Below are positions 9,046-64,000 of a stretch of 64,000 bases of DNA, piece after piece. Position 1 is the stretch's first letter; every line of letters begins with the position of its first letter. This DNA comes from Microtetraspora glauca (GTDB lineage Bacteria; Actinomycetota; Actinomycetes; Streptosporangiales; Streptosporangiaceae): NCBI GenBank assembly GCA_001570385.1, contig BBYL01000013.1, positions 124,001-188,000 of the forward strand, in the 5' to 3' direction. The notes under the pieces are model-generated. The model was not told the origin of the DNA. It did not search any database and saw only the letters and a list, made by a program, of their open reading frames with translations. The translations under genes were made by a program, and so were the position numbers.

Positions 9046-9074
9046 GGAGAGGCTCCCACCGAAAGCACCAGGAG

Positions 9075-12527: not shown

Positions 12528-12530
12528 TGG

Positions 12531-18837: not shown

Positions 18838-18846
18838 GACGTGCGT

Positions 18847-20270: not shown

Positions 20271-20300
20271 GCCCGTCCTTTCCAGCGACAGTAAATCAAG

Positions 20301-20654
20301 GTGAAGAGCGTGAACGACGACGTCACCCAGTACATCAACAAGACGCAGCCGTGGCAGATCGACGTGTGCGAGAAACTACGTGCGATGATCGGCGAGACCA
20401 TTCCAGGTGTCGAGGAACGGCTCCAGTACGGCAAGCCGCACTACCTCAAGAACGGGCACTACGCGGCCGTCATCGCGGTAGCCAAGGCCAAGGTCTCGTT
20501 CATGGTGTTCAACGCGACGGACATCCCTGAGGTCAAGGGATTCCTCCGGGCAATGGGCACCGGTGAACGCAAGACCGTCGACATCAAGGAAGGAGATAAC
20601 GTCGACTACGACGCACTTGCCGGCATCCTGGAAAAGACCACGGCCAACTTGTAG
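20301..20654 (+). CDS. DUF1801 (YdhG-like) protein
   Basis: A 117-residue DUF1801 protein. Family phrases are 'DVTQYINKTQPWQIDVCEKL', 'IPGVEERLQYGKPHYLKNG' (the usual E.....YGxP.f) and 'FMVFNATDIPEVKGFLRA'. The proposed start is GTG 20301; a second GTG at 20310 is possible. The function of the family is unknown. It lies directly after the cupin gene on the same strand. Confidence 0.85.
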   Translation: MKSVNDDVTQYINKTQPWQIDVCEKLRAMIGETIPGVEERLQYGKPHYLKNGHYAAVIAVAKAKVSFMVFNATDIPEVKGFLRAMGTGERKTVDIKEGDNVDYDALAGILEKTTANL

Positions 20655-20739
20655 TTGCGAGGGTGTCTGCCGCGGCAGGGCCACGGCCCCGGCATCAGGG
20701 CTGACGGAGTTCTCGAATGTTGAGACGACCACCCCCGGC

Positions 20740-21451: not shown

Positions 21452-21536
21452 GGAAGTTGCTCGCGGAGAGCAAGCCACTGATCAAGCGCTCTTGCTGTCG
21501 GCGTCGTCGACACATAGCTACGGATGGCCTGGGCCC

Positions 21537-21623
21537 GGCCTGATCACCCTGTCCGCCGTCGACCCGCCCGAAGGGGAAGTGGGCCAAGGCTGCCGGGTTG
21601 ATGGCGGGCGGGGTGATCAGGCC
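21537..21623. repeat. 13-bp inverted repeat pair around 61 bp
   Basis: GGCCTGATCACCC (21537-21549) is mirrored exactly by GGGTGATCAGGCC (21611-21623). The arms enclose 61 bp that code for nothing I can see. It could be the ends of a tiny non-autonomous element or a cruciform. Confidence 0.65.
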
Positions 21624-21713
21624 CCTACCTCAGCCAGCTACGGCCGAGCACGATGAGCAGGGCCTTGGCGATCACCCTGGAGCCGGAGCGCCCCGCTGGA
21701 GGCTGGGTTTGAA

Positions 21714-22154
21714 TTGATCCCTCTATGGCGAAAGCCTAGGTTCGGAGCCGTGGCAGATGATCTGGTCAGATCGGCAACGTCGCCTACAAGGTTCCCGTTG
21801 CGAGTGACATTCGTCGGGTGGGCTCTGCTTGCCGCGGTGCTGTCGTGGGTTGCTGCGTTCATCGCTTGGTTCTTGGTCAGCTTCTCCCTAGAGCTTGACG
21901 AGTGCGGCCTTGACCCACTCACGGAATATGAGACAGAGAAATGCGCTCCCGTCAGCCAATGGGCAAGCGTCACGGCCTATGCCCTGTTTGCCAGTCCACT
22001 TGCCTGGCTGCTGGCGGGACTCTTTCTGTGGTTGGCGCCCAGGCGCCTCGTTCGCATCCGACAGCTGGCGGCATGGGCCATGCCTGCGCTGCCGGTCTTC
22101 GTCATCGCGGCTCAGGTGCTTGTGTCTTTGCTATACGGACCGCTCCCTGCTTGA
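21714..22154 (+). CDS. Small membrane protein of unknown function
   Basis: A protein of up to 146 residues with three hydrophobic segments ('TFVGWALLAAVLSWVAAFIA', 'TAYALFASPLAWLLAGLFLW' and 'MPALPVFVIAAQVLVSLLY'). A short acidic extracytoplasmic loop contains two Cys ('ELDECGLDPL', 'EKCAPVS') that could pair. The start is uncertain: TTG 21714 opens the frame, while GTG 21750 is a reasonable alternative. No family is recognised. Confidence 0.5.
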   Translation: MIPLWRKPRFGAVADDLVRSATSPTRFPLRVTFVGWALLAAVLSWVAAFIAWFLVSFSLELDECGLDPLTEYETEKCAPVSQWASVTAYALFASPLAWLLAGLFLWLAPRRLVRIRQLAAWAMPALPVFVIAAQVLVSLLYGPLPA

Positions 22155-22347
22155 GCGATCAGACGACCGTCGTGCGGCGGACCGGCCCGAGCTGCCGGCG
22201 GCCGGGACCGGCCCCCAGGCCGCATGCCCGGCCGCCGAGCGGGCGCAGGGCCGCGAGGCGGCGCGCAGCGCCGCCGCTTGATCCTTAAAAGCTCAATTCG
22301 GCAATGATCCGGTCGGGCTGTCTACGTCCGGTGGTAGACCGTTGGTC

Positions 22348-23181
22348 ATGGAGGATCGGCAGGATCGGTTGCGGGAGCTGGGCGAGCTGCTGCGGCGGCT
22401 GCGTAAGGATGCGGGGCTGACCGGTAAGGATCTCGCGCAGCGGGCCGGAGTGGCTCAGCCGACGATCTCTCGGATGGAGACCGGGCGACTGCTGCCGACT
22501 CCCGAGACGGTTGAGCGGGTATCCGCAGCGCTTAACCTCGACGAGGACAAGCGGCGTGAGTTGGACGCGCTGCTACTGCGGCTGCGCGATGAGGTGTCCC
22601 GGTTGAAGAGTGGGCTTGCCGGCCGAGAAGCGGCGAACGCCGCACGGGTTCGCTCGGCTCAATGGATGGCCGTGTTCTCCTCGGCGATGATTCCGCCGCT
22701 GTTGCAGACGGCCGAGTACGCCCGGCTCGCTCTCGCGATCGGCCAGGATGTGGACCAGGACGACGTGGCCAAGGCGGCGGCCGTACGGGTCGAGTCTCAA
22801 TCCGTCGTGTTCGAGCCTGGTCGGAAGTTCGCGTTCGTTCTGACTGAGGGCGCGGTGCGGACGTGGCCGGGATCGCCGTCGTTGATGCCAGCGCAACTCG
22901 ATCGGCTCGCCCAGGTGTCCACGCTTCCCCATGTGCGCCTCGGGGTCGTTCCCTGGAGCGTGGAAGCGCCGGCCTTCCCTCTTCACGGGTTCACGATCTA
23001 CGACGGCTCGGTGAGCGTGGTCGAGAGCCTGACCGGTGATCTCACCCTGACGGAGACCGGCGAGATCGACACGCACATGGACGTGTTCGAGGCGTTCGCG
23101 GCTGCCGCTGTCTACGACGATGCCCTACGGGATCTTCTAGGGCAGATCGGGGCGGACTACCGCGCTCTCGCCAGCAAGTAG
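22348..23181 (+). CDS. XRE-family regulator with DUF5753 domain
   Basis: A 277-residue actinomycete regulator. The N-terminal helix-turn-helix is 'LGELLRRLRKDAGLTGKDLA' then 'QRAGVAQPTISRMETGRLLP'. The rest is a DUF5753 domain ('VRSAQWMAVFSSAMIPPLLQ', 'AEYARLAL', 'LTEGAVRTWPGSP', 'LPHVRLGVVPWSVEAPAFP', 'HGFTIYDGSVSVVESLTGDL'). Members of this class usually sit next to a DUF397 gene and an RsbW-like ATPase gene. Here a chimeric ATPase fragment follows 67 bp downstream, and no DUF397 is nearby. ATG 22348 is preferred over TTG 22342. A partial copy is at 14964-15176. Confidence 0.92.
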   Translation: MEDRQDRLRELGELLRRLRKDAGLTGKDLAQRAGVAQPTISRMETGRLLPTPETVERVSAALNLDEDKRRELDALLLRLRDEVSRLKSGLAGREAANAARVRSAQWMAVFSSAMIPPLLQTAEYARLALAIGQDVDQDDVAKAAAVRVESQSVVFEPGRKFAFVLTEGAVRTWPGSPSLMPAQLDRLAQVSTLPHVRLGVVPWSVEAPAFPLHGFTIYDGSVSVVESLTGDLTLTETGEIDTHMDVFEAFAAAAVYDDALRDLLGQIGADYRALASK

Positions 23182-23248
23182 CCAGTCCTAGCGCATTTAT
23201 GCGTCGAATGCCTTGAGTAGCTTCTAGCGTTGGTCATACGCTGCCGAC

Positions 23249-24019
23249 ATGGATGTATGGCGAATGTCCCGCCACTTCCTCGGCTCCCCCGCCTCGATCA
23301 CCGAAGCCCGCCGCTTCGTCACCACCTTCTTGAAGTGCTGGCCGTCCCTGCAATCGGCCGAACTCATCGTGAGACTGGCCACCAACGCCGTACGGCATTC
23401 GGCAAGCGGTCGATTCGGCGGGCTGTTCACCGTCACAGCGTCGCTGCATGACTTCACCTGCGACGTGAACCATCCCGGCTCGCCCTCAGCCACTGTCGTC
23501 ATGCTCCGCCGTACCGGTGACGCGTTGGACTTCCTCGTTCTGGCCGACTCCGTCCTCGTACTTGACGTGATCGGCGCGGATGCGCCGATGGTCATCACCG
23601 ATGATCGAGAAGGACAAGTCGGTAAGCGCTACCGGACGGCCATGGATGCGCTGGGCTCCGGCACTCCCGATCACACTGCCGCTCTGCATGAGTACGTGGA
23701 GGCCATGCGGGCGCACCGCAACCGCGACGGCGGATTCTGGGTCGCGGCCTCTGATCCACTCGCTGCAGAACAGGCGCTCACAGGAACACTGCCCACTGAC
23801 CAGATTCGCGCGGCGGCACTCCTCAGCGATGGAGCATCCCGCCTCGTCGACCGCTTCGGCCTCGCCACCTGGCGGCAAGCCCTCGACATCCTCGCCCAGG
23901 GCGGCCCCGCCGAACTCATCCGCCAAGTCCGCCAGGCGGAACACTCAGACATACACGGCAAGCGCTGGCCCCGTGGGAAGTCTTTGGACGACGCCACTGC
24001 GGCCTACAGCATGCCATAG
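23249..24019 (+). CDS. Chimeric protein: HATPase-fragment fused to PP2C-like domain
   Basis: A 256-residue open frame made of two unrelated parts. Residues 1 to about 72 ('GSPASITEARRFVTTFLKCW', 'ELIVRLATNAVRHSASG', 'FTVTASLHDFTCDV') match the start of RsbW-like anti-sigma ATPases, including the N-box N-A-x-x-H, but the ATP-lid G-boxes that should follow are gone. From about residue 74 ('SATVVMLRRTGDALDFLVLA', 'APMVITDD', 'DGGFWVAASDPLAAEQALTG', 'ALLSDGASRLVDRFG', 'RWPRGKSLDDATAAYSMP') it matches the C-terminal half of actinomycete PP2C-like phosphatases. It follows the XRE gene, where an intact ATPase is expected. It may be a deletion fusion; activity is doubtful. Confidence 0.7.
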   Translation: MDVWRMSRHFLGSPASITEARRFVTTFLKCWPSLQSAELIVRLATNAVRHSASGRFGGLFTVTASLHDFTCDVNHPGSPSATVVMLRRTGDALDFLVLADSVLVLDVIGADAPMVITDDREGQVGKRYRTAMDALGSGTPDHTAALHEYVEAMRAHRNRDGGFWVAASDPLAAEQALTGTLPTDQIRAAALLSDGASRLVDRFGLATWRQALDILAQGGPAELIRQVRQAEHSDIHGKRWPRGKSLDDATAAYSMP

Positions 24020-24720
24020 CTATCCGCACGGTTATCCGGCACGGTTATCGTCAAGGCCTTCGTATCGAAGCCTCTTGTGATCAGCCACACGGCCAGAACC
24101 AAGCTTTGTAGGGCTAGTGGTGCGTTCATGGCCAGGTAGAGCGGCGTGACGACGCCAGTCACACGAAACAGCACCAAGAAACTCGCCGACATGGCCAATC
24201 CAGCCCCAAGGATTCCCCATACAGACAGCCAGCGAGGGACAAATCTCCACCGATATAGAATGGCGAACAGCAGGAGATCTCCGAGGCTCAGCGAGATGAT
24301 CAAGGCGACATGATTGACCAGGTCGCGCGCCGTCCGCAACAACTCGCCCAAGGCTCCGAGGTGGGATGCACCCACAGCGCCGGCTTGGGTGAATTCCTGA
24401 CCCAGCACCAGGAACAGCGGTAAGAGAATCACACCTGTGAAATGGAACGTCGCTGCGATCATCCTGAATCCAAGGAAGCCCAGACTGAGCGCTTCATTCG
24501 CCATTCTCAATGTTGGATACAGGTACAGCGCAAACCCGACATAGGCGGGGATCATGATGAACTGAGAAGCTGCGCCGATGATGATCTGGCTCTCATGCGC
24601 AGAAATGAGATCGAGATAGTGCGGCTCCTCTATGGCGGGAACAACACTGAACACGCCGACGACCATGCCCACGATGACTAGTGCGCCGGCAATTGCAGTT
24701 GCTCGCCTGGCTGTATTCAT
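24004..24720 (-). CDS. DUF4386 six-TM membrane protein
   Basis: A 238-residue integral membrane protein with six to seven hydrophobic segments. DUF4386 features are 'RRATAIAGALVIVGMVVGVF' at the N-terminus, a conserved 'SLGFLGFRMIAATFHFTGVI' and 'YRWRFVPRWLSVWGILGAG' near the C-terminus. The gene overlaps the end of the chimeric gene by 16 bases (convergent). Two palindromic CTTACANNNGTAAG-like sites stand 45-91 bp upstream of its start, so it is probably under control of a TetR-type repressor that is not present in the adjacent DNA. The function of the family is unknown. Confidence 0.88.
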   Translation of the reverse strand: MNTARRATAIAGALVIVGMVVGVFSVVPAIEEPHYLDLISAHESQIIIGAASQFIMIPAYVGFALYLYPTLRMANEALSLGFLGFRMIAATFHFTGVILLPLFLVLGQEFTQAGAVGASHLGALGELLRTARDLVNHVALIISLSLGDLLLFAILYRWRFVPRWLSVWGILGAGLAMSASFLVLFRVTGVVTPLYLAMNAPLALQSLVLAVWLITRGFDTKALTITVPDNRADSYGML

Positions 24721-24764
24721 GACACTTCTCCCCGTATATGTCGCCGCGGCCGGCCGCTCCGCCT

Positions 24765-24811
24765 CTTACACCTGTAAGGCTGCTGCAGACGCTATCCTTA
24801 CATCCGTAAGG
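24765..24811. promoter_or_regulatory. Pair of palindromic operators upstream of DUF4386 gene
   Basis: CTTACACCTGTAAG (24765-24778) and CCTTACATCCGTAAGG (24796-24811) are two related palindromes with centres 32 bp apart. Sites of this form (TTACAnnTGTAA) are typical of TetR/AcrR regulators. The expected divergent regulator gene is missing; a replication-initiator relic occupies that side. Confidence 0.7.
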
Positions 24812-24937
24812 CCGCAAGCGCTCCTGCGCATCACGCCGCCCCGCCCAAGCCTGGCGAGACGACGCCGAAAAGGCCGGCGACGACACCACCGACCTGGACG
24901 CGGCGATAGCCGACCTCGACGACGAGACATCCAGCCC

Positions 24938-25201
24938 AAGGGCGCCAAGCGGGGCATGATCCCCGGCCGGTGCCGGGGCAAGGCGCACAAGCCCGAACAC
25001 CTCGGCTACGCCGGACGCCGCGTACTCGTCTCCCGGAAGTGGTCGAACAAGACCCTGACCGAGCACAAGCACGACCGCCGTACCTGGGTCCTGGAAGCCC
25101 TCGGCCTGCCAGACGAATCGATCGACCCGCACCGCTATGTCTGGCGGCCGGTCAAGCCGATCGATGAGGTAGAGAATGAGCAAGCGCATAGCCTCGAATG
25201 A
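24938..25201 (+). pseudogene. C-terminal relic of an AICE/plasmid replication initiator
   Basis: The frame reads 'GYAGRRVLVSRKWSNKTLTE', 'HKHDRRTWVLEALGLPDES' and 'DPHRYVWRPVKPIDE'. This matches the C-terminal end of the rolling-circle replication initiators (RepSA-like) carried by actinomycete integrative elements. There is no catalytic part and no start codon in frame. Its presence inside the region bounded by tRNA-Ala copies supports that region being a dead integrative element. Confidence 0.65.
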
Positions 25202-25522
25202 CACCTGATCCGCGTTTGTTCGAGTGACGGCCATAACCTCATCCACGACATCGGGATCGGACTCGATTCGAGAAGCTGCGGCGTTGGCTCCGCAAGGCCG
25301 AAGGGCGTGACTGGATGGGCGCCCCCAGCGCGGCCTGAGGATGGCGAGATTCAAAGGCTGGGTGGCCAAAAGGCCAACCCAGGCATCCTTCCCAAGTCGG
25401 AGATCGTCGGCCTGGGATCAGGGTTTCCGTCAGGGATAGCTCCGATGCCGCACTGCCCTCTCGTGGGCGATCGTGATGCGGCGGAGGCCGAGAGCCGGAC
25501 TCCGTAAATCGGAGGAACAAAC
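25202..25522. other. Region without a supported gene upstream of serine hydrolase
   Basis: 321 bp between the replication-initiator relic and the serine hydrolase. I find no coding frame with family features. The last 15 bases hold the GGAGG ribosome site of the next gene. Confidence 0.4.
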
Positions 25523-26632
25523 GTGAAGGGAAAACGCACCAGCGCGGCCGTCGTGGCCTGCGTGACCGTGTCACTGCTGGCAACACCTGCCGTGACCACC
25601 GCCGCGGCGGCCGACACGAGCCCGAGCAGTCGGCCGAATTTGCAGGCGATACTGGACAAGGCCGTCGCCGACGGCTCGGTTGCCGCCATCGCCGAAGTTC
25701 GCGACGGAGACAAGACCTGGCGAGCCGCGAGCGGCAAGGCGAAGCTGAACAACGCCCAGCCGGCTCCGGTGAACGGGCGGTTCCGGGCCGGGAGCGTCAC
25801 CAAGTCATTCACGGCGACCGTGGTGCTTCAACTCGTGGGAGAGGGAAAGCTGCGACTGTCCGACAGCGTGGAACAGTGGCTGCCGGGGCTCGTGGACAAG
25901 GGCGCCGACATCACGATCAGGCACCTCCTCCAGCACACCAGCGGCCTTCCCGAGTACTCGACGGGCATGATGGACGAGGCGGGCATCCCCAAGGAGCGCT
26001 ATCGCACCTGGTCGGCACGCGAACTGGTGGAAAGGGCGGACAAGCTTCCGCGCGATTTCCCGCCCGGGACCGACTACAGGTACTCCAACACGAACTACAT
26101 CGTGCTCGGCATGCTGATCGAGAAGGTCACCGGCAGGCCGTACGCGACAGAGGTCAGGGAGCGGATCCTGCGGCCGCTCGGCTTGCGGCACACCCGCGTT
26201 CCTGGGGCCTCTCCGGAGGTGTACGGCCCGCACGCCCACGCTTATGTGCCGGTCACCAGGGGCGGCACGGTCGTCCCTGTTGACGTCACGCGGTTCAATC
26301 CCACGATGGCCGGTGCGGCGGGCGAGATCATTTCCACGAACGAGGACATCAACCGGTTCTACCGCGCCCTGTTGCAGGGCAAGCTGCTCCGTCCTGGTCT
26401 GCTGAAGGAGATGAAGGACCCCGGCACGGCGAAGGGGTACGGGCTGGGGCTGGAGGTGGCACCCCTGCCCTGCGGCACTGCGTTCGGTCACGGCGGCGGT
26501 GGCCCAGGCTTCCTCGTGGTGGCGTTCAGTTCGGCCGACGGTTCGCGACAGGTCACATTGTCGATCACCACGTTCTCCGGCGACCCCCATAAGGCGGCCA
26601 TGACCCTGATGACCTCTGCGCTGTGCCCTTAG
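25523..26632 (+). CDS. Secreted serine hydrolase, D-Ala-D-Ala carboxypeptidase-like
   Basis: A 369-residue secreted protein. It starts at GTG 25523 with a strong GGAGG site and has a signal peptide with cleavage near AAAAA-DT. The beta-lactamase/PBP fold shows S-V-T-K in 'RAGSVTKSFTATVVLQLVGE', Y-S-N in 'DYRYSNTNYIVLGMLIE' and H-G-G in 'FGHGGGGPGFLVV', the full catalytic triad of class C/R61-type DD-peptidases. Its length is normal for the family. It is distinct from the 13401 protein, which has C-terminal membrane helices. It probably acts on peptidoglycan peptides or esters outside the cell. It is intact although surrounded by relics, and so may be cargo. Confidence 0.9.
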   Translation: MKGKRTSAAVVACVTVSLLATPAVTTAAAADTSPSSRPNLQAILDKAVADGSVAAIAEVRDGDKTWRAASGKAKLNNAQPAPVNGRFRAGSVTKSFTATVVLQLVGEGKLRLSDSVEQWLPGLVDKGADITIRHLLQHTSGLPEYSTGMMDEAGIPKERYRTWSARELVERADKLPRDFPPGTDYRYSNTNYIVLGMLIEKVTGRPYATEVRERILRPLGLRHTRVPGASPEVYGPHAHAYVPVTRGGTVVPVDVTRFNPTMAGAAGEIISTNEDINRFYRALLQGKLLRPGLLKEMKDPGTAKGYGLGLEVAPLPCGTAFGHGGGGPGFLVVAFSSADGSRQVTLSITTFSGDPHKAAMTLMTSALCP

Positions 26633-26774
26633 AGGGCGTCAAAGGCCGAGGTTAGGGCGGTTGGAAGTTCAAGCTCGTCTTGGTGGTGAAGGCGGCCGGC
26701 CGTGATGCGCTTGGCCACCGTCGCGTAGACCCGGGTCATCCGGCAGACCCAGGGCATCCGGGGCTACGGTGGCC

Positions 26775-26952
26775 AAGGAGTTATTCACCGCGACACGCGA
26801 CGCAAGCGGGCTCAAGGCGGGCTTCTACTACTGGCTGTAGGGGTGGCACAACACACCGGGGCGCCACGGGTCCGCGGCTACGTCAAGAACTACATGCTCC
26901 CGCAGATGCGGGAGCTCATCGAGGGCTACGCCCCCGACATCATCTGGCCCGG
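26775..26952 (+). pseudogene. Alpha-L-fucosidase (GH29) relic
   Basis: The frames read 'KELFTATRDASGLKAGFYYW' with a stop, then 'YVKNYMLPQMRELIEGYAPD' and 'IIWP'. This reproduces a GH29 core block (family phrase: AVR..GLKFGxYYS.. then Y...Q..EL...Y.PDxLW). Only about 60 codons remain, with an in-frame TAG and a frame change between the parts. The region runs straight into the integrase relic. Confidence 0.7.
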
Positions 26953-27104
26953 ATGGAGCACGACAGCGACCGGCGGCGCTGATCTACCAGCATGCCACCC
27001 GCGACGCTGACCAGAAGATCGCCCATGCGCTGAGCGCTTGCGTTGAGGCCGAGCGGAAGAACGACGAAGAGAGCTCGACCGATGTGCCGGTCTCGAAGGG
27101 TTAA
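26953..27104 (+). pseudogene. C-terminal relic of a tyrosine-recombinase integrase
   Basis: After a small frame error the frame reads 'ALIYQHATRDADQKIAHALS' and 'ACVEAERKNDEESS', ending at TAA 27102. It is preceded by 'MEHDSD', the counterpart of the family's M-G-H-S-S. This is the tail of actinomycete phage-type integrases, including the active-site Tyr in 'IYQH'. It lies 59 bp from the intact tRNA-Ala, where an int gene sits in a live element. Confidence 0.82.
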
Positions 27105-27121
27105 TGGCACGTTAATGGCCC

Positions 27122-27156
27122 GAACGCCGCTCCTCTTGATCGAGGAAGCGGCGTTC
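27122..27156 (+). terminator. Hairpin terminator after the integrase relic
   Basis: Arms GAACGCCGCT(CCTC) and (GAGG)AAGCGGCGTTC form a 14-bp stem with one bulged A. It stands between the integrase tail and tRNA-Ala, 7 bp before the tRNA 3' end. Confidence 0.75.
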
Positions 27157-27163
27157 TCGCAGG

Positions 27164-27236
27164 TGGAGCCTAGGAGATTCGAACTCCTGACATCCTGCTT
27201 GCAAAGCAGGCGCTCTGCCAACTGAGCTAAGGCCCC
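27164..27236 (-). tRNA. tRNA-Ala (anticodon TGC)
   Basis: A complete 73-nt cloverleaf. The acceptor stem GGGGCCT pairs with AGGCTCC (one G-U), the D-arm holds GCTCAGTTGGCAGAGC, and the anticodon arm is CCTGC-TTTGCAA-GCAGG with anticodon TGC. The T-arm is AGGAG-TTCGAAT-CTCCT and the discriminator is A. No CCA is encoded. It is the only intact tRNA-Ala in the window and seems to be the restored insertion target. Confidence 0.95.
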
Positions 27237-56329: not shown

Positions 56330-56489
56330 CCCTCGATCCGTTCCCACCCGCACAACGATCCCCCGAGTCAACCAGGTTCGTACGGTTCGCGCGGGATGTG
56401 ACGGAGATCGGGCGGTGGCCGGCGCCGCGCGGCGGGCCTCCGGCACGATCATCGGGGCCGGCGACTCGCCGGCCCCGCCGCGCGGCTGA

Positions 56490-56927
56490 TCAGTCGAGGC
56501 AGAACTCGTTGCCCTCGGGGTCGGCCATGATGATGTGACCGGCGCCGAGTGGGGGAGCGGGCTCATAGCGCCGGAGCCGGGTGGCGCCGTGGGAGACGAG
56601 CCGCTCGGCCTCCGCCTCCATGGCCGCCATCCGCGCGTCGCCCACGAGGCCGGGGGCGGCCCGCACGTCGAGGTGCACGCGGTTCTTGGCCTGCTTGCCC
56701 TCCGGCACCCGCTGGAAGAACAGCCGCGGCCCGGAGCCCTCGGGGTCGACCACCGCCGAGGCGTCGTTGCGGCTCTCGGGCGGCACGCCCATCGCCTCCA
56801 GGGCCTGCTCCCACGACTCGAACCCCTCGGGCGGGTCCTGCAGCCGATAGCCGAGGGCCTCGGCCCAGAACGCCGCCAACCCGGCCGGGTCGGCGCAGTC
56901 AAAGGTGATCTGCACGTCGCGGGCCAT
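56490..56927 (-). CDS. VOC-family (glyoxalase/bleomycin-resistance fold) protein
   Basis: A 145-residue VOC protein. 'VQITFDCADPAGLAAFWAEA' opens the fold. 'GPRLFFQRVPEGKQAKNRVH' and 'LDVRAAPG' supply one metal side, and 'MADPEGNEFCLD' the other (Glu ligand). The pattern resembles actinomycete VOC proteins that often neighbour WYL regulators. The substrate is unknown. It is divergent from the WYL regulator, with a 26-residue reading frame just upstream. Confidence 0.9.
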   Translation of the reverse strand: MARDVQITFDCADPAGLAAFWAEALGYRLQDPPEGFESWEQALEAMGVPPESRNDASAVVDPEGSGPRLFFQRVPEGKQAKNRVHLDVRAAPGLVGDARMAAMEAEAERLVSHGATRLRRYEPAPPLGAGHIIMADPEGNEFCLD

Positions 56928-56928
56928 C

Positions 56929-57009
56929 TCAGCTCGCCTCCCGCCGGGTCTGCTGGTGGGTGTGCGGGTGGAGGTCGCGGAGCACGGGGCTCCAGGTCTG
57001 GTCGGTCAT
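56929..57009 (-). CDS. Possible 26-aa leader peptide before VOC gene
   Basis: ATG 57009 opens a 26-residue frame ('MTDQTWSPVLRDLHPHTHQQ' then 'TRREAS') that stops 2 bases before the VOC start. It is His/Arg-rich, with no homologue I recognise. It may be a coupled leader peptide or the residue of a deleted gene. Support is the tight spacing only. Confidence 0.35.
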   Translation of the reverse strand: MTDQTWSPVLRDLHPHTHQQTRREAS

Positions 57010-57040
57010 GGTGTCCACCCTGCCGCATATAGCGGACAGG

Positions 57041-57065
57041 ATCGTTCCGCGATCTGTGGAACGAT
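57041..57065. promoter_or_regulatory. Inverted repeat between VOC and WYL genes
   Basis: ATCGTTCC (57041-57048) and GGAACGAT (57058-57065) are perfect complements 9 bp apart, ending 6 bp before the GTG of the WYL gene. It is the likely binding site of that regulator, serving both divergent promoters. Confidence 0.75.
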
Positions 57066-57071
57066 GAGCGC

Positions 57072-58031
57072 GTGACAGTCGAGGCGACGACCGAGCGGGT
57101 GCTGCGGTTACTGGCGCTGCTGCAGCACCGGCCGTCCTGGACCGCCGCCGAGCTCGCCGCCGAACTGGGGGTCACCGACCGCTCGGTGCGCCGCGACGTG
57201 GAGCGGCTGCGCGCGCTCGGCTACCCCGTGCACGCGACGGCGGGCGTCGGCGGCGGCTACCAGCTCGGCGCGGGCACCCGGCTGCCGCCGCTGCTCCTCG
57301 ACGACGAGGAGGCGATCGCGACGGCGGTGTCCCTGCGGCTGGCGTCGGGGGGCACGGTCGCCGGGGCGGGCGAGGCGGCATTGCGGGCGCTCGCGAAGCT
57401 CGACCAGGTGATGCCGCCCCGGCTGCGCGCCGAGGTGCGGGCGGTGTACGGCGCCACCGAGACCCTGCTCGGCCCCGGAGTCGAGATCGACGCGGAGCTG
57501 CTGGTGACACTCGCGCGGGCCTGTCGCGACGCCGTACGGGTGCGGTTCCGGTACGCCGGCCGCGACGGCGGGGAGCGCGAGCGCACGGTCGAGCCGGTAC
57601 GGATGGTCGCCACCGGCCGCCGCTGGTACCTGATGGCCTGGGACGTCGACCGCGACGACTGGCGCACCTTCCGGCTGGACCGGATGCGCGAGGTGGCGGC
57701 GACGACCTGGCGCTTCCGGGCGAGGGAGCATCCGGACCCGGTCGCCTACGTGCAGCGGTCCGTGACCGAGGCGCCGTACCGGTATCTCGCCCGGGTGCGG
57801 GTGCACGCCCGGCCCGATCGGGTTCGGGGGCTGGTGCCGCCCCAGGTGGGGCGCGTCGAGGATGATCGCGACGGGTGGTGCGTGCTCGTCGTCGGCGGGG
57901 AGGACCTGGACCGGATCGCCGTGCACGTGGCCCGGCTGGGCTTCGAGGCTGAGGTGCTGGAGCCTCCGGAGCTGCGGGAGGCCGCCGCCCTGCTCGCCCG
58001 CCGCCTCGCGGCGATGGCCGGGACCGGCTGA
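57072..58031 (+). CDS. YafY-type WYL-domain transcriptional regulator
   Basis: A 319-residue regulator starting at GTG 57072. The winged HTH_11 domain is 'ERVLRLLALLQHRPSWTAAE' and 'LAAELGVTDRSVRRDVERLR'. The WYL ligand domain (about 135-220) has 'EPVRMVATGRRWYLMAWDVD' with W-Y-L, and the C-terminal WCX region ends 'REAAALLARRLAAMAGTG'. WYL proteins sense nucleotides, ssDNA or small molecules and regulate the gene they face. Here that is the VOC gene. Confidence 0.93.
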   Translation: MTVEATTERVLRLLALLQHRPSWTAAELAAELGVTDRSVRRDVERLRALGYPVHATAGVGGGYQLGAGTRLPPLLLDDEEAIATAVSLRLASGGTVAGAGEAALRALAKLDQVMPPRLRAEVRAVYGATETLLGPGVEIDAELLVTLARACRDAVRVRFRYAGRDGGERERTVEPVRMVATGRRWYLMAWDVDRDDWRTFRLDRMREVAATTWRFRAREHPDPVAYVQRSVTEAPYRYLARVRVHARPDRVRGLVPPQVGRVEDDRDGWCVLVVGGEDLDRIAVHVARLGFEAEVLEPPELREAAALLARRLAAMAGTG

Positions 58032-58081
58032 CGGACCCGGTCAGCCCGTGCTCGACACCGTGCCTTCTGAATGATCAACGA

Positions 58082-58128
58082 TGGTGGGGCTACCAGGACT
58101 TGAACCTGGGACCTCTTCCTTATCAGGG
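58082..58128 (-). repeat. tRNA-Ile 3'-part copy (attachment-site repeat A)
   Basis: 47 bp identical to 63879-63925, covering CCA, acceptor and T arms and the anticodon arm of tRNA-Ile(GAT) up to CTTATCAGGG in the anticodon loop. The sequence then diverges into the alpha/beta hydrolase 3' end. It is the left boundary of a tRNA-Ile island. Confidence 0.92.
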
Positions 58129-58165
58129 GCTGCCGGAAGCGGCCCACGCGGCTCGAGTGGGCGGG

Positions 58166-58891
58166 TCAGCCGAGCTTGAGCAGCAGTTCGGTGAGCTCGG
58201 CCGGCATGGTGATCATGCAGTCGTGGCCCGTCTCCAGTTCCCACACCTGTGCCGGGCTGCCGTTGGGCTGTATCTCTGGGACGGGCCGCCGCTTGATGCC
58301 CTCCGGTACGCCGGCGACGCAGTGAATGTGCGTCCGCGGAATCGTGCGCACGGCCGGGTTGTCCAGCCGGACCGGTTGCCGGAGGCAGAGCACCGGCTGA
58401 TCCGACAACATCGTCCGCAACCACGCCACGTCCGCCGGGTCGGTGACCCCGAACAGGCCCAGGGGCGGCGGCAACTCGGGCATCGGCGGGATCCGCCAGC
58501 CGACCTCGGACTCCGCGGCGCGGTCGATGAGGGCCTGGGTCACGGGATGCACCTCGACCGCGCTCTCGCCGTCCTCCGGGACCATCGCGTCGAGATAGAC
58601 CAGATGGGCGATCCGATCCGGGATCCGGTTGGCGGCGGACGAGATGACCAGCCCGGCGTAGCTGTGGCCCACCAGGATCACGTCGGTGAGGTCCTCCTCG
58701 TTGATCAGCCTGACGATGTCGTCGACGTGCGTGTCCAGCCCTACCTCGGGGCCGAGCAGATGCGCCTTGTCGCCGTAGCCGGTCAGCGACGGCGCGACCA
58801 CCCGATGCCCGGCCGATGCCAGCAACGGGACCACCCGCTCCCAGCATTGCCCGCTGTGCCAGGCCCCGTGTACGAGCAAAAATGTTGACAT
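58166..58891 (-). CDS. Alpha/beta hydrolase (esterase, salicylate-esterase-like)
   Basis: A 241-residue alpha/beta hydrolase starting at ATG 58891. The oxyanion region is 'FLLVHGAWHSGQCWERVVPL'. The nucleophile elbow is 'ILVGHSYAGLVISSAANR' (G-H-S-Y-A-G). The acid is probably the Asp in 'HLVYLDAMVPEDGES' and the base the His in 'WELETGHDCMITMPAELTEL'. The overall pattern matches AB hydrolase 6 / methylesterase-like proteins. It is divergent from the MmyB-type XRE regulator (160 bp), which may control it. The gene begins the island cargo next to the tRNA-Ile copy at 58.1 kb. Confidence 0.92.
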   Translation of the reverse strand: MSTFLLVHGAWHSGQCWERVVPLLASAGHRVVAPSLTGYGDKAHLLGPEVGLDTHVDDIVRLINEEDLTDVILVGHSYAGLVISSAANRIPDRIAHLVYLDAMVPEDGESAVEVHPVTQALIDRAAESEVGWRIPPMPELPPPLGLFGVTDPADVAWLRTMLSDQPVLCLRQPVRLDNPAVRTIPRTHIHCVAGVPEGIKRRPVPEIQPNGSPAQVWELETGHDCMITMPAELTELLLKLG

Positions 58892-59051
58892 GGTGTAGCT
58901 CCTTGTTTGCGGAAGGGACCACCAGCCGATTTCCCCAGCGTTCGTCCCGGAAGCGAGGTTTCCGCTCACCCGCTGACAGAGCCAGAGCCCCCGCGATCCT
59001 GGGGGTGACAGGACCAGGCACGCACGAAAGTGCGCGAATTACAGTGGGGAC

Positions 59052-59915
59052 ATGAGGGACGAATCCAACCTTCTGGGCGATTACGTACGCGCCCGCCGGG
59101 AGCTCGTCACTCCTGAACAGGCCGGCATCCCCTCCGTGGGCGTACGGCGCGTGCCGGGCCTGCGCCGGGAGGAGGTCGCGATGCTCGCCGGCATCAGCGC
59201 CGACTACTACCTGCGCCTGGAACAGGGCCGCGACCGCAACCCCTCCGCGCAGGTCCTCGAGTCCCTCGCCCGCGTGCTGCTGCTCGACGATGACGCGACG
59301 GCCTACCTGCTACGCCTCGGGGCGGGAAAACCCCGGCGGCGACGGCGACCCCGGAAGGAAACCGTCCCCCCCGGCGTCGCCAAGCTCGTCGTCACGCTCC
59401 CGCTCCCCGCGTACGTGGAGGGCCGCTACTTCGATGTCCTCGCCGCCAACGCGCTGGCGACCGCTCTGTCGCCGCGACTCGTGGCGGGGGGCAACCGCCT
59501 GCGGGACGTGTTCCTAGACCCCGCCGAGCAGGCCCTCTACCCGGACTGGGAGGACGCCGCGCAGGGCATGGTCGCCGGCTTCCGCGAGTCCGTCGGCACC
59601 GACACGGACGACCCCCGATTCATCGAACTCGTCGGCGAACTCTCCCTCGCCAGCCCTCGCTTCAGCAGGCTCTGGGCCCGCCACGACGTGAACACGTGCG
59701 AAGGCACACCCAAGCACATCGACCACCCCCAGGTCGGTGGCCTCTGGCTGAACCGGGAGAGATTGGGCGTCAGCGGCGCGACAGGTCAGACGCTCGTCGT
59801 CCTCCACCCGGACCCCGGCACCGACAGTGCCGACAAGCTGGCGCTCCTCGCGTACGTCGGCCGGCCCCGCCTGCCCCGCACCGGCGGGATGCCGTCGAGC
59901 AGCGGCATGGGCTGA
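59052..59915 (+). CDS. XRE regulator with MmyB-like ligand domain
   Basis: A 287-residue regulator. The HTH is 'LGDYVRARRELVTPEQAG' followed by the family phrase 'RRVPGLRREEVAMLAGISAD' and 'YYLRLEQGRDRNPSAQVLES'. The C-terminal MmyB-like PAS-type domain shows 'EGRYFDVLAANALATALSPR' and 'HPQVGGLWLNRERLGVSG' and 'HPDPGTDSADKLALLA'. MmyB-like proteins bind fatty-acid-like ligands. Such regulators are usually divergent from a small oxidoreductase or hydrolase, as here. It is the last intact gene before the tRNA-Ile copy at 60.1 kb. Confidence 0.93.
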   Translation: MRDESNLLGDYVRARRELVTPEQAGIPSVGVRRVPGLRREEVAMLAGISADYYLRLEQGRDRNPSAQVLESLARVLLLDDDATAYLLRLGAGKPRRRRRPRKETVPPGVAKLVVTLPLPAYVEGRYFDVLAANALATALSPRLVAGGNRLRDVFLDPAEQALYPDWEDAAQGMVAGFRESVGTDTDDPRFIELVGELSLASPRFSRLWARHDVNTCEGTPKHIDHPQVGGLWLNRERLGVSGATGQTLVVLHPDPGTDSADKLALLAYVGRPRLPRTGGMPSSSGMG

Positions 59916-60021
59916 GTGACATCGCCGCGGTTGCCGCCGGCGAGACCGACCGTCGATGCGAATTGATCTCTGTCACCTGGTCGGGGCCGACCCGCTGACG
60001 AATGGCCAACAAACGATCAAA

Positions 60022-60052
60022 AGGCCAGATCCCTGATCGTGGGACCTGGCCT
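60022..60052 (+). terminator. GGCC-type hairpin before tRNA-Ile copy B
   Basis: AGGCCAG-A-TCCC (60022-60033) and GGGA-C-CTGGCCT (60041-60052) form a 12-bp stem with one mismatch. It is the same class of hairpin as at 18.8, 30.9 and 63.8 kb, located 16 bp before the core. Confidence 0.75.
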
Positions 60053-60068
60053 CTGAGCTGATGCTTCG

Positions 60069-60230
60069 TGGTGGGGCTACCAGGACTTGAACCTGGGACC
60101 TCTTCCTCATCAGGCAACGACGACAGGCGACCGAACTGGCCTTCCTGACTTTTCACCTGCGGTGACTGTCCATCGCCGTCCATACGTGTCCAAGGTTGTC
60201 CGTCACCGTTGTCACGCAGTCCGTCACGCA
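60069..60230 (-). repeat. tRNA-Ile 3'-part copy B with possible arm motif
   Basis: 46 bp (60069-60114) equal to the tRNA-Ile core with one change (CTT to CTC before ATCAGG). The right side then reads CAACGACGACAGG, related to the 17.4-kb site. GTCACGCAGT-CCGTCACGCA (60211-60230) has two direct GTCACGCA units and resembles motifs near two other sites. I read it as core plus possible arm-type integrase sites. Confidence 0.7.
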
Positions 60231-60644
60231 CCAGACCTTTGTTCAGCTGGCTGCGGCCTCGCTGTGCATGTCAGATCATCGAGATCTGCTCCGTCATGGC
60301 GGGTGACCTTCGGTGACTGCCTGCCTTGTACGTTGAGCTGGGCTTTTAGCGTTCGCTGGTTCTCTTCGTTTCGCGCTGCTTTTCGCGCTTATGTGCCCTG
60401 ACTGTGCCCTGCCCTCGCTTCTTGTCAGTCAACGGCGATGGGTGTAGGAGCTGGTCTTATAGCGTCTCCACCTGCCGGGATCGTCTCCTTTCGTCCACAA
60501 GCGTCCATGGTTGTCCATCAATGCGCCGAGCGCATCCAACCGTCAGTCGCCGCACGCTGTCTAAACAGCCGGTTCGGGCGTGTGTGAGGTGTCGCTTTAA
60601 GTCGGTACAAGACGGACACAAGGGGTCATGATGATGATGGCGGC
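60231..60644. other. Region without a supported gene right of copy B
   Basis: About 400 bp of lower GC and no coding signal. It leads to the secreted-protein gene at 60645. No other feature is seen. Confidence 0.4.
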
Positions 60645-61217
60645 ATGAACCTCTCAAAGAGCCTGTTCCGGGTCCTCGTCGGGGCGGCCCTCCTGGGGCC
60701 GATCGTCGTCCCCGCCACCGCTGCCGCCGCCTCCGCCGAGACCGCCCCCTCGGTCCAGATCGTCCTTAACACGGTCACCTCCTGGCAGCCGTCGGAGAGC
60801 GTAGGTGACGACTTGTACGTGCGGATGGTCGGCCCCACTGCGTTCCCGATAATGCCCCGGGACGTCATTGTCTTCCCCAAGCAAGGGTCCCCAGGCGCGG
60901 ACGGCTGGTTTACGATGACGGCCAAGGCCAAGGACTGCTTCAGCACCGAGGGGGCTCCATGCCCGTCGGGCACTAACGCTATCGGGAATACAGCCGCAAG
61001 CGAGCTGAATACAAAGCCGGTGTTCTTGGCCATCGGCGGCTGGGCCTACATCGAAATCTGGGACTACGACATCTTCAGCGATCACGACCGCCTCGTCCGG
61101 GTGCCCATCAAGCTCGACCCCTTGACCAGCCCCGTGCAGACAAGGATACGCCTGGCCCAGGGCGCTGACTACGAGGTCGACTTCACACTGTTCCCCAGTT
61201 GGAAAGTGCCGTTTTGA
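60645..61217 (+). CDS. Secreted hypothetical protein, 190 aa
   Basis: A 190-residue exported protein with a clear signal peptide ('KSLFRVLVGAALLGPIVVPA', cleavage near AAAAS-AE). The mature part has two Cys in 'KDCFSTEGAPCPSG', probably a disulfide, and beta-rich text such as 'VFLAIGGWAYIEIWDYDIFS' and 'QTRIRLAQGADYEVDFTLF'. I recognise no family. The start is ATG 60645; no strong Shine-Dalgarno is seen. It may be element cargo. Confidence 0.7.
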   Translation: MNLSKSLFRVLVGAALLGPIVVPATAAAASAETAPSVQIVLNTVTSWQPSESVGDDLYVRMVGPTAFPIMPRDVIVFPKQGSPGADGWFTMTAKAKDCFSTEGAPCPSGTNAIGNTAASELNTKPVFLAIGGWAYIEIWDYDIFSDHDRLVRVPIKLDPLTSPVQTRIRLAQGADYEVDFTLFPSWKVPF

Positions 61218-61315
61218 CCATATTCACCGCCACTGTCAGAGCGTGTTTGAGAAGGGTCGATAGCGGTCTGCGCATCTCGCCGCCGTGACCACCGTCAGAT
61301 CGCGATCATGACTGG

Positions 61316-62154
61316 GTGCCCCGCGAACGTCGCTACCCCTCCGACCTGACCGACGCCCAATGGGCGCTGGTCGAGCCGCTGCTACCCGCGCCGAACACGG
61401 GAGGGAGGCCGGACAAGCACCCGCGCCTGGACATCGTGGACGCCATCTTGTATGTGGTGCGGACGGGTTGCGCCTGGCGGCAGTTGCCGGTCGACTTCCC
61501 GCCCTGGCAGACCGTGTACTGGTACTTCGTCCGCTGGGAAGAAGCCAAGGTCACCGAGCAGATGCTCACCGTGCTGCGGCGTCGGGTCCGGGCGGCGCAA
61601 GGGCGAGCCGAGGAACCAACGGCGGGCATCATCGACTCCCAGAGCGTCAAGGGCGCCGACACCGTCGGCCGCGGGTCCCGCGGCTACGACGCGGGAAAGA
61701 AGGTCAACGGCGTAAGCGGTTCATCGTCACCGACACCCTCGGATTGCTGCTGGTCGTCTGCGTGATGGCCGCCTCCGTCCAGGACCGCGATGGAGCCAAG
61801 ACCACTCTGCTCAGCATGTACCTGGTCACGCCGGTCCGGTACGTGTTCGCCGACGCCGGCTTCGCCGGGATGCTGGTGGACTGGACCCAGCGCGTGCTGC
61901 GGACCGTGCCGCATATCGTCCGCAAGGCCCCCGGGCAGATCGGGTTCGCGGTGATCGAGCGGCGGTGGGTCGTCGAACGGTCGCTGGCCTGGGTGACCAC
62001 CCACCGCCGCCTGGCCCGGGACTATGAGCGCCAGCCAGCCACAGCCGAGGCCATGATCCGATGGGCCGCGATCAGCGGTATGGCACGCCGTCTCGCGCGG
62101 GGAAGCGCCGCAACTCGTCAGCAGCGCATCACCCTCGCTCATCCAGCGGAGTAG
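61316..62154 (+). mobile_element. IS5-family transposase gene, broken by a frameshift
   Basis: The first frame (61316-61765) reads 'RRYPSDLTDAQWALVEPLLP', 'GCAWRQLPVDFPPWQTVYWY', 'AGIIDSQSVKGADT' (DDE Asp) and 'GYDAGKKVNG'. A one-base loss near 61715 then shifts the frame. The second continues to 62154: 'KRFIVTDTLGLLLVVCVMAA', 'YVFADAGFAGMLVDWTQRVL', 'IERRWVVERSLAWVTTHRRL' (DDE Glu). All catalytic parts survive at DNA level but in two frames. AGAGCGTGTTTGAGAAGGG at about 61237 resembles an IS5 left end. I found no matching right end, so the 3' end is probably lost. Programmed frameshifting is possible but unproven. Confidence 0.88.
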
Positions 62155-62516
62155 CTCTCACCAGACCCGCACCATCTGCCGGTACCGGCACGTCCCGGCT
62201 TTGTCAGGGCTGCTCCCGCCCTTCCCGGCACCACCCGGATCAGGCTGCCCCCCGGCTCCACCTCCCTGACACGATAGGACAGAGGCGGCGAAGGTCTTCA
62301 CTCCACAATCACAGCGCCTTGCTACGCCTGCAACCAGGCCAAGGCTGACCAGCTCCCGCAGACCTTCCTCCGTCCGAACGGCCTGGCTCCAGGTCTTCGC
62401 CCCCGTCCGCAGTCGCGGCCCGGCTTCCTCGCCCGCGTCCGCTCGGCTGTCGCGGCGGTCGTCGCCCGGCGTCCCCGTCTGATCGCGCGTCACCGCTCGT
62501 CGGTGGAGGTGGCCGC

Positions 62517-62937
62517 TTGACCACTCTGGATCCCGCTCCGCAGCGGGCCGAGTACTTCCATCACCTTCCGGGCGGGCTTCGTCGCCGATACCGCGACCTG
62601 GCCCGCCTGGGCGGCTGCGTCCAGCCGATCCGCGTCCGTGGGGAGATGTCCCACGTCGGTGCCGACGGCATCCAACGCAAGGTCTACAGCACCCGCGGTG
62701 AGATCGGCGGCGTTCTCCTGGTCGCCTGCGGCAACCGCCGTGCATCGCGTTGTCCTGCCTGCGCTGAGGTGTACCGGGCCGACACCTTCCACCTGATCCG
62801 CGCCGGTCTGCTCGGGGGAGACAAGGGAGTCCCGGATTCGGTGCGCGAGCATCCCCGCGCCCTGGTCACGCTGACCGCGCCGTCGTTCGGGCCGGTCCAC
62901 GCCCACCGCACCGGTAAGGACGGGGCGTCTCGTCGGG
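62517..62937 (+). pseudogene. N-terminal part of an AICE replication initiator (RepSA-like)
   Basis: The frame from TTG 62517 reads 'GCVQPIRVRGEMSHVGADG', 'YSTRGEIGGVLLVACGNRRA' and 'SRCPACAEVYRADTFHLIRA', then 'HPRALVTLTAPSFGPVH', the zinc-ribbon and motif 1-2 region of RepSA-type rolling-circle initiators. It breaks off at about 62937 and joins an integrase tail. A short Cys-containing frame ending at 62520 overlaps its start (TTGA), typical of an upstream spd- or helper-gene remnant. Confidence 0.85.
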
Positions 62938-63053
62938 CACAGCAGTACGGCCGTGACGGAACTCGTTTACCGCAAGCAGATCCGGCCCGTTCTCCAAGGT
63001 GGCGCGGTGGTGATGGACCAGATCTTCAAGCGGTCCGTCTTAGGGGCTATCTA
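62938..63053 (+). pseudogene. C-terminal relic of a tyrosine-recombinase integrase, fused to Rep fragment
   Basis: The frame reads 'HSSTAVTELVYRKQIRPVLQ' then 'GGAVVMDQIFKRSV', stop at 63051. It holds the active-site Tyr in 'ELVYRKQ', the family's last conserved block. It is out of frame with the Rep part, so a deletion has joined rep to int. Its sequence differs from the integrase relic beside tRNA-Ala, so two integrases existed. Confidence 0.85.
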
Positions 63054-63777
63054 GACGATGGACAAGGTCAACTGTGGGACCAACAACCCAGATCTGCTGG
63101 AATCCGATGCCGACCGCCCACTCGCCATACTGCTCGCGGAAGGCGTTGACTACCGGTTGCAGTGCGCCTCCCACGCTGTCGGTGGCGTCCAGGACAAGGA
63201 TCACGCTTCGATCAGCGCGAGTTCTCTTGGCTCCGATAGCGTCTCGGATCTCCTCGACGGCCTCTGCTTGAGTGCGGATCCGCTCCAAAGAGGGCTGGCG
63301 TGCCAGCACAGCCCACGCCACTCTCTCTACCGTGGTGACTTGGATCATCAAACTCTGCCCAGCGTCGTTATGGGCAATGCAGTCCACGCCCCGCTCATCC
63401 CGAGCACCCGCGCTCAGCACCTCGGGATCGCGCCAGTTCTGTCCGAACTGGTTGAGCCGACGCAGGAGACCTTGAGCCGCGCGCAGTTCCCTATATTCCT
63501 TTTGAGAGGCCCTGCCCCCGATACGATCAAGAAGCAGCCCGTTCGTATCGACGTCCGCGCTCGCGGTTCGTCCATCGACGCCGCTGCGGAACACGCGGAT
63601 GGTTGCGCTGCCATCGATACCTCGACCGTCGATGACCATGGATTCCTCGCCAGTAGCGCTGTCTTCAAGGAACACATGTCGTGTCACGTGCTGGGGCTGA
63701 GGCCCGTTTGTCTCGGTGATCTCGCTCCCGGTTGGGGAGCCATCAAGCTCAGGTCGGTCCTTCGGAAGGCCGACCAT
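63040..63777 (-). CDS. Hypothetical protein with possible degenerate PD-(D/E)XK core
   Basis: A 245-residue soluble protein starting at ATG 63777 with GAGGAG upstream. A region after about residue 130 reads 'DERGVDCIAHNDAGQSLMIQ' then 'VTTVERVAW'. A D-x(n)-Q-x-T pattern of this type recalls the nuclease core D...(D/E/Q)-x-K, but Lys is replaced by Thr. The remainder ('RTQAEAVEEIRDAIGAKRTR', 'VILVLDATDSVGGALQPVV') suggests a beta-alpha fold. I do not recognise a family. It lies between the integrase relic and tRNA-Ile, the usual place of element cargo, and its end overlaps the relic. Confidence 0.6.
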   Translation of the reverse strand: MVGLPKDRPELDGSPTGSEITETNGPQPQHVTRHVFLEDSATGEESMVIDGRGIDGSATIRVFRSGVDGRTASADVDTNGLLLDRIGGRASQKEYRELRAAQGLLRRLNQFGQNWRDPEVLSAGARDERGVDCIAHNDAGQSLMIQVTTVERVAWAVLARQPSLERIRTQAEAVEEIRDAIGAKRTRADRSVILVLDATDSVGGALQPVVNAFREQYGEWAVGIGFQQIWVVGPTVDLVHRLDSP

Positions 63778-63809
63778 GTCTCTCCTCACCGCTGCTATTG
63801 AGAGCATTA

Positions 63810-63829
63810 GTCACGCAGTTAGGCACGCA
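63810..63829. promoter_or_regulatory. Possible integrase arm-type site next to tRNA-Ile
   Basis: GTCACGCAGTTAGGCACGCA has the same 20-bp form as 60211-60230 and 17533-17552 and lies 50 bp before the tRNA 3' end. Confidence 0.5.
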
Positions 63830-63839
63830 GAGATCAAAA

Positions 63840-63870
63840 AGGCCGTTCTCCGACGATCGGAAAACGGCCT
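63840..63870 (+). terminator. GGCC-type hairpin before tRNA-Ile
   Basis: AGGCCGTTCTCC (63840-63851) and GGAAAACGGCCT (63859-63870) form a 12-bp stem with one mismatch and a 7-base loop, led by a run of A. Confidence 0.8.
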
Positions 63871-63878
63871 GTGAACTG

Positions 63879-63955
63879 TGGTGGGGCTACCAGGACTTGA
63901 ACCTGGGACCTCTTCCTTATCAGGGAAGCGCTCTAACCGACTGAGCTATAGCCCC
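63879..63955 (-). tRNA. tRNA-Ile (anticodon GAT), CCA encoded
   Basis: A complete tRNA. The acceptor GGGGCTA pairs with TAGCCCC, the D-arm region is GCTCAGTCGGTTAGAGC, and the anticodon arm CTTCC-CTGATAA-GGAAG gives anticodon GAT. The T-arm is CCAGG-TTCAAGT-CCTGG and the discriminator A is followed by an encoded CCA (63879-63881). Its 3' 47 bp recur exactly at 58082-58128 and nearly at 60069-60114. Confidence 0.96.
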
Positions 63956-64000
63956 TTGCACGCGCCACGAACGTTACCGCATCCGCTGGACGGAGGCGAA

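What the first reader, a model, noticed from the sequence alone, without database searches (positions are those of the whole stretch)
58082..63955. tRNA-Ile island with three nested attachment cores
A 47-bp block of tRNA-Ile(GAT) recurs exactly at 58082 and 63879 and with one change at 60069. Each copy ends in the anticodon loop. The first interval holds a hydrolase and an MmyB-type regulator. The second holds a secreted protein, an IS5 relic, Rep and Int remnants and a possible nuclease-like protein. This indicates tandem integration of two elements at the same tRNA.
Basis: partly seen in the sequence, partly recalled or inferred. Interest (0 to 1): 0.72.

Follow-up and report, generated by a model that had tools for sequence, protein, structure and literature searches.

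The report
Decayed tandem element array at tRNA-Ile
The DNA next to this bacterium's isoleucine tRNA gene is best read as the wreckage of two mobile elements that landed there one after the other, a known kind of event at a tRNA that relatives also use as a landing site.

Summary
The three tRNA-Ile cores are real: 47/47 at 58082, 45/47 at 60069; only the 63879 copy belongs to a whole tRNA. Interval 2 (60069-63879) is a decayed RepSA/Xis/Int (AICE-type) element. A sister in another genus (G085) has full-length RepSA, an Xis-like HTH gene and Int between matching ends; here 2,284 bp of the sister are missing, so that the RepSA N-terminus meets the last 36 Int residues, and an unclassified 255-aa ORF lies between int and the arm repeats. 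Interval 1 (58082-60069) has no detected mobility gene. It holds a hydrolase-MmyB pair, whole in 24 other genomes of 297, flush against the left core; its right end is of another arm/terminator type, which supports a separate, earlier entry. The units are tandem, not nested. Neither interval was found at the tRNA in three congeners; one has 572 bp where this genome has 7.5 kb. Tandem accretion of AICEs at tRNA genes is published for Frankia and Streptomyces. Less expected: recurrent core ends without a nearby integrase, and tRNA-Ile standing 11-77 kb from tRNA-Ala in 9 family genomes. New member of a known kind.

The parts
63879..63955 (-). intact tRNA-Ile(GAT); its 3' part 63879-63925 is the core
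   Evidence: ARAGORN
60069..60115 (-). second core, 45/47, left end of interval 2
58082..58128 (-). third core, 47/47, left end of interval 1
63840..63870 (-). hairpin terminator behind the tRNA (type-1 end)
   Evidence: folding z -5.8; comparison of ends
63810..63829 (+). putative integrase arm repeats GTCACGCA/GGCACGCA, tRNA-side end of interval 2
   Evidence: function inferred
60211..60230 (+). putative integrase arm repeats GTCACGCA x2, distal end of interval 2
   Evidence: function inferred
59948..60068 (-). type-4 end left of the 60069 core, with hairpin at about 60022-60053
   Evidence: folding z -5.3; matches in 40 of 297 family genomes
58062..58081 (-). short terminator-like remnant left of the 58082 core; no stable hairpin remains
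   Evidence: 58062-58127 86% to L081; folding z 0.55 over 58020-58088
58166..58969 (-). alpha/beta hydrolase
   Evidence: PF12697 E 4e-23
59052..59915 (+). MmyB-type HTH regulator; last codons differ from its relatives after about 59858
   Evidence: PF17765 E 1.5e-47
60645..61217 (+). 190-aa ORF, possible secreted protein, no family match
   Evidence: besides own, 1 of 60 genomes has a weak relative
61316..62154 (+). IS5-family transposase split over two frames
   Evidence: NF033580 on both ORFs, frames shown
62517..62924 (+). RepSA N-terminal fragment
   Evidence: PF20199 profile positions 7-140 of 438, E 2.7e-41
62926..63054 (+). integrase C-terminal fragment, in another frame than RepSA
   Evidence: residues 345-380 of 380 of the G085 integrase, 97%; 87.5% DNA identity over 62926-63029
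63040..63807 (-). 255-aa ORF of unclassified family between int and the arm repeats
   Evidence: no Pfam/NCBIfam/PADLOC match; one relative, G167, 44%
56473..58042 (.). WYL regulator (57072-58031) and a neighbouring VOC-like ORF (56490-56927, label recalled, not scanned), left of the array; absent next to the tRNA in G002, 94% identical elsewhere in G003

Best explanation
A decayed tandem array (accretion) of two elements that entered the anticodon-loop-to-3'-end segment of tRNA-Ile. First an element with a type-4 end entered and left the 58082 core as its distal copy. Later a RepSA/Xis/Int (AICE-type) element with a type-1 end entered the same tRNA and left the 60069 core. Each entry replaces the tRNA's 3' half and the terminator behind it by the element's own, so the tRNA stays whole and the used core is pushed left. 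The AICE then lost most of rep, xis and int, and holds an IS5-family copy and a 255-aa ORF; the older unit is now a hydrolase-regulator pair between cores. Shown: cores, remnants, sister element, absence from congeners' tRNA loci, different ends. Inferred: order of events, mechanism of each loss, present immobility, arm-site function, and how the gene pair came in.
For: Cores. Sister element in G085 aligns in four blocks in the same order, with 2,284 bp of the sister missing between RepSA and the Int end; its RepSA, HTH_17 and Phage_integrase confirmed. Arm-like repeats at both ends of interval 2. Type-1 end at the tRNA, type-4 end at 60069. G001-G003 show neither interval at the tRNA. G031 has a tandem series with integrase genes beside two of three cores and an int relic at the third. 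Of 25 core-bounded intervals in 22 selected genomes, 8 have a near-full Int and 8 only its C-terminal part.
Against: Interval 1 has no detected integrase, no left arm, and its cargo abuts the core directly, so it may never have been a complete element. Type-4 ends stand at the tRNA itself in 14 of 22 loci, so type 4 could be a native tRNA flank rather than an element end. G003 has a type-1-like end at its tRNA, aligning from window 63808 on, and G001 aligns from 63831, without interval 2: the type-1 end may be older in the genus than interval 2. G002 is not a virgin site. No excision data.
Confidence: 0.8

Rival explanations
1. One composite island: 58082-63879 came in as a single unit that already held an internal core.
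For: Neither interval is seen alone at the tRNA in the three congeners; joint excision of tandem AICEs is published (PMC3218068 section 11).
Against: The G085 sister of interval 2 sits at its tRNA-Ile with a type-4 end and core beyond it but other genes further left, so interval 2 can enter without interval 1; its hydrolase-MmyB pair is on another contig.
Confidence: 0.12
2. Only interval 2 was an integrated element; interval 1 with the 58082 core arose by illegitimate recombination or a chance capture next to a native type-4 tRNA flank.
For: Cargo flush with core 58082; no mobility gene; type-4 end at the tRNA itself in 14 of 22 loci.
Against: A 47-bp tRNA fragment ending at the anticodon loop is what integrase-made copies in other genomes look like; G216 has three type-4 cores besides its tRNA end and G095 has two type-4 ends, odd for a native flank.
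Confidence: 0.2
3. The short copies are leftovers of ordinary tRNA gene duplication.
For: They are tRNA sequence.
Against: Copies stop at the same point by the anticodon loop, also in other genomes, and near-full integrase genes lie in 8 of 25 intervals between such copies.
Confidence: 0.02

Closest known systems
Fean6303 and tandem Fean5518/Fean5534, AICEs of Frankia sp. EAN1pec (PMC3218068; passages and section 11 read)
   Same: Three direct repeats (attL, attL2, attR) at one tRNA, or two AICEs in tandem at one tRNA; rep-int-att order.
   Different: Those are functional (excision shown); here both units are decayed, the tRNA is tRNA-Ile(GAT), and interval 1 has no mobility gene.
Accretion of AICEs and defective AICEs at tRNA-Arg in Streptomyces (PMC9513070; passages read)
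   Same: Elements with different integrases share one tRNA, beside a conserved remnant.
   Different: Different tRNA and family; here no functional element remains in the array.
Cis-mobilizable elements (CIME) of the ICESt1 type (recalled; search listing only)
   Same: Interval 1: bounded by core repeats, no mobility gene found, next to an ICE-like element.
   Different: No evidence of mobilisation; no recognisable left arm.

Membership tests
AICE (interval 2) | RepSA-type replication initiator | tested here: met
   N-terminal fragment only, PF20199 E 2.7e-41; full length in the G085 sister
AICE (interval 2) | tyrosine integrase with Xis next to att | tested here: inconclusive
   Int C-terminal 36 residues present; Xis and the rest of Int missing; full set in the G085 sister
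AICE (interval 2) | direct repeats at a tRNA 3' end | tested here: met
AICE (interval 2) | FtsK-type transfer protein (Tra) | tested here: inconclusive
   A Walker-motif scan of all 25 intervals printed no ORF, including those with full Rep and Int, so it says little; the ORFs of interval 2 scanned by Pfam show none
AICE (interval 2) | excision and transfer | not testable with these tools
   no reads or assays
CIME (interval 1) | flanking att cores without own recombination and transfer genes | tested here: met
   cores; no match to five Int and three Rep queries; no PF00589 match among those listed (capped list)
CIME (interval 1) | complete att sites usable by a resident integrase | tested here: inconclusive
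   type-4 right end present; left arm not recognisable
CIME (interval 1) | mobilisation in cis with an ICE | not testable with these tools
   no assay
PD-(D/E)xK nuclease (ORF 63040-63807) | restriction-endonuclease-like fold | tested here: inconclusive
   Two-sequence model, pLDDT 59.5, residues 1-100 below 50; no Foldseek match at E<=0.001; VIA Z at most 7.1, with XisH (6.7, 5.9), PaqCI 6.1, MspJI 6.0, EndoMS 4.3, FokI 4.1 mixed with acetyl-CoA carboxylase rows

The most novel reading that the evidence does not exclude
The type-4 ends mark a family of integrase-free, core-bounded cassettes: cargo units whose conserved end of about 120 bp (arm repeats and terminator) plus tRNA core let integrases of resident AICEs move them in trans, so that the tRNA-Ile locus works as a tRNA-based cassette array.
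Probability: 0.15. Interest if true: 0.65.

Novelty: new member of a known kind. Interest (0 to 1): 0.33.

Why it matters
If read rightly, the locus is a fossil series: each entry swaps the tRNA's terminator and pushes the former core outward, so core ends can be read as strata of past integrases. In the family the same tRNA shows intact, decaying and nearly emptied intervals. If the integrase-free ends prove mobile in trans, that would be a new way for such bacteria to collect single genes.

Tried and rejected
Relatives of the 255-aa ORF: 2 of 297 family genomes counting its own; no relative among 88 pattern stretches in genome contigs; no match in phages or plasmids; no PADLOC family; two PDB sequence hits, best E 0.089. 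A nuclease role is not claimed; rows of nuclease folds stayed below Z 8.

G002 as a virgin site: rejected, because its tRNA is followed by a type-2 repeat pair (GTTGCAG) after what looks like the last codons of a type-2 int.

Type 4 as the native tRNA flank: unresolved. For: it stands at the tRNA itself in 14 of 22 loci with a core. Against: G216 has it at three cores besides its tRNA end, G095 at both ends.

Hairpin test: 61 of 80 core or tRNA ends have a stem score of 8 or more, against 3.7% of mononucleotide shuffles. The 80 include loci picked for type-4 similarity, so the set is biased; the simple score fails on some type-2 ends, whose GC-rich inverted repeats are visible by eye; the 58082 core itself scores 5.

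Print. One search (terminator supplied by an integrated element) found 0 papers; 58, 74 and 75 were seen as listings only, with no title on point. This is a small search of an open-access library, not proof of novelty.

Full report
1. Observation. The only whole tRNA-Ile(GAT) of the window is 63879-63955, minus strand. Its 3' 47 bp recur at 58082 (47/47) and 60069 (45/47); the next best match in the window is 26/47. A 46-bp pattern with up to 3 mismatches finds these three places and no other in the own genome. The repeat runs from the anticodon loop to the encoded CCA; partial copies in other genomes depart right after the loop too, as expected if a tyrosine recombinase crosses over there (recalled knowledge).

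2. Place. Right of the tRNA lie DUF3566, gyrA, gyrB and a RecF-like gene; this flank is 90-93% identical in the three congeners. In six genomes of other families tRNA-Ala(TGC) stands behind tRNA-Ile at 129, 222, 259, 260, 381 and 1,277 bp (coordinates); 9 of the 13 loci showed no tRNA-Ala within their short flanks. In this family the 9 genomes with both genes on one contig have them 11.5 to 77 kb apart, 36.6 kb here (in the other family genomes searched they lie on different contigs or one gave no match). The space behind tRNA-Ile thus looks like a long-used insertion region, of which the reported block is the tRNA-side part; that the rest of it is also inserted is inference.

3. Relatives. 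In G002 the shared sequence left of the island ends at window 56384 and resumes at the tRNA, with 572 bp between instead of 7.5 kb. G001 has about 6.2 kb of other DNA there, including an ABC-transporter ATPase; G003 has other genes. In these three, the array region gives only the core and the tRNA-side end as hits: G003 aligns from 63808 and G001 from 63831, so a similar end occurs there without interval 2. The WYL gene and its neighbour (56473-58042) are also absent next to these tRNAs; a 94% copy stands elsewhere in G003.

4. Interval 2. G085, another genus, holds a sister of 6.4 kb between a core and tRNA-Ile, with RepSA (508 bits), a 69-aa HTH_17 protein (Xis-like) and a 380-aa Phage_integrase protein. 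Window blocks align in the same order: 59948-60239 (79%), 62583-62912 (82%), 62926-63029 (87.5%), 63808-64000 (86%). Between blocks two and three, 2,284 bp of the sister are missing (13 bp in the window). Between blocks three and four the window has 778 bp, with the 255-aa ORF, where the sister has 18. GTCACGCA occurs at 60211, 60223 and 63810, with GGCACGCA after the last. Relatives of this Int exist elsewhere in the own genome: C7 69% and C30 63% without stops, C8 74% with one stop; the C7 copy sits at tRNA-Ala(CGC) with the same int-repeats-hairpin-tRNA layout. The genome has 13 RepSA matches, 12 over the cut-off, fragments and the window's own included.

5. Interval 1. No match to five Int and three Rep queries, and no PF00589 match among those listed (capped list). 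The gene pair, or part of it, matches in 60 of 297 family genomes at E<=1e-100, the own one included; it is whole (1.6 kb or more, 82-96%) in 24 others. For the three genomes compared it is closer to ours than the longest aligned gyrase-region pieces: 96.0 against 89.2% (G085), 94.0 against 86.5% (G031), 88.2 against 81-83% (G028). This suggests lateral spread. Of 15 copies aligned, 5 begin to match at 58126, within the last bases of the core, and 14 stop at 59851-59865, in the last codons of MmyB; beyond the pair, long shared flanks are the exception. So here the pair abuts the core, with no arm between.

6. Ends. Hairpins lie behind most cores and tRNAs, and the ends fall into types: type 1 (int stop, then GTCACnCAG-like repeats), type 2 (GTTGCAG pair after an int ending in LFE), type 4 (window 59948-60068), among others; the typing is mine. 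The window has type 1 at the tRNA, type 4 at 60069, and at 58082 a terminator-like remnant without a stable hairpin. Read as strata, the type-1 element came after the type-4 one. Type-4 matches: 40 of 297 genomes at E<=1e-6. Of the 30 loci returned, 22 have a core beside the match, the window's own included: 14 the tRNA itself, 8 a partial core. In 21 of these 22 no ORF with a simple integrase motif lies in the adjoining 1.6 kb or so (motif and composition filter only).

7. Recurrence. I took 25 core-bounded intervals from 22 genomes, chosen because two or more cores lie close together. Eight have a near-full Int (at least 90% of a query), eight only a C-terminal part of it (36 residues here, 270 in G179; in the tRNA-side half except in G179, where it spans the middle), two another partial or remote match, and seven none. 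Integrase-free intervals carry varied cargo: a carboxylesterase (G216), a NUDIX protein (G184), an RHS/Hint protein of 2,233 aa (G095), a protein with an alpha-lytic-protease prodomain (G317), unclassified ORFs in G018 (10 ORFs scanned; the small ORF of G309 was not), and the hydrolase-MmyB pair here. For six of these seven plus the window the PF00589 listing, cut at about E 4e-9, shows no integrase inside the interval (one search covers all seven genomes).

8. Known or new. Tandem AICEs, three direct repeats at one tRNA, and excision of single and joint units are published for Frankia (PMC3218068: passages and section 11 read); accretion of AICEs beside remnants is published for Streptomyces (PMC9513070: passages read). 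The window is a decayed new member of that kind. The integrase-free ends and terminator swapping are the less expected part and remain hypotheses.

Noticed in passing
window 18845-27236: A second tRNA array: tRNA-Ala(TGC) 27162-27236 has a partial core copy at 18845 (43/46) with a hairpin-like end beside it, and a RepSA fragment lies between at about 24761-25150. G002 has three such tRNA-Ala copies near its gene.
   Followed up: partly
window 58126-59858: The hydrolase-MmyB pair is 94-96% identical across several genera at places with mostly different flanks, as if it spreads as a two-gene unit.
   Followed up: partly
window 27236-63879: tRNA-Ile and tRNA-Ala, near neighbours in six genomes of other families, are 36.6 kb apart here and 11.5-77 kb apart in 9 of 9 family genomes with both on one contig.
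   Followed up: partly
window 60108; G216:C73:4976-5021: The internal change in the 60069 core (TCATCAG for TTATCAG, in the anticodon loop) recurs in a type-1 core of G216; it might mark an attP variant.
   Followed up: no
L079 (G095:C52) 2525-14581: A 12-kb core-bounded interval with no integrase found, type-4 ends at both the tRNA and the distal core, holding a 2,233-aa RHS/Hint protein.
   Followed up: partly
L036/L037 (G031:C1:240749-259390): A tandem series of three tRNA-Ile cores with two integrase genes, each beside its core, and an int relic at the third.
   Followed up: partly
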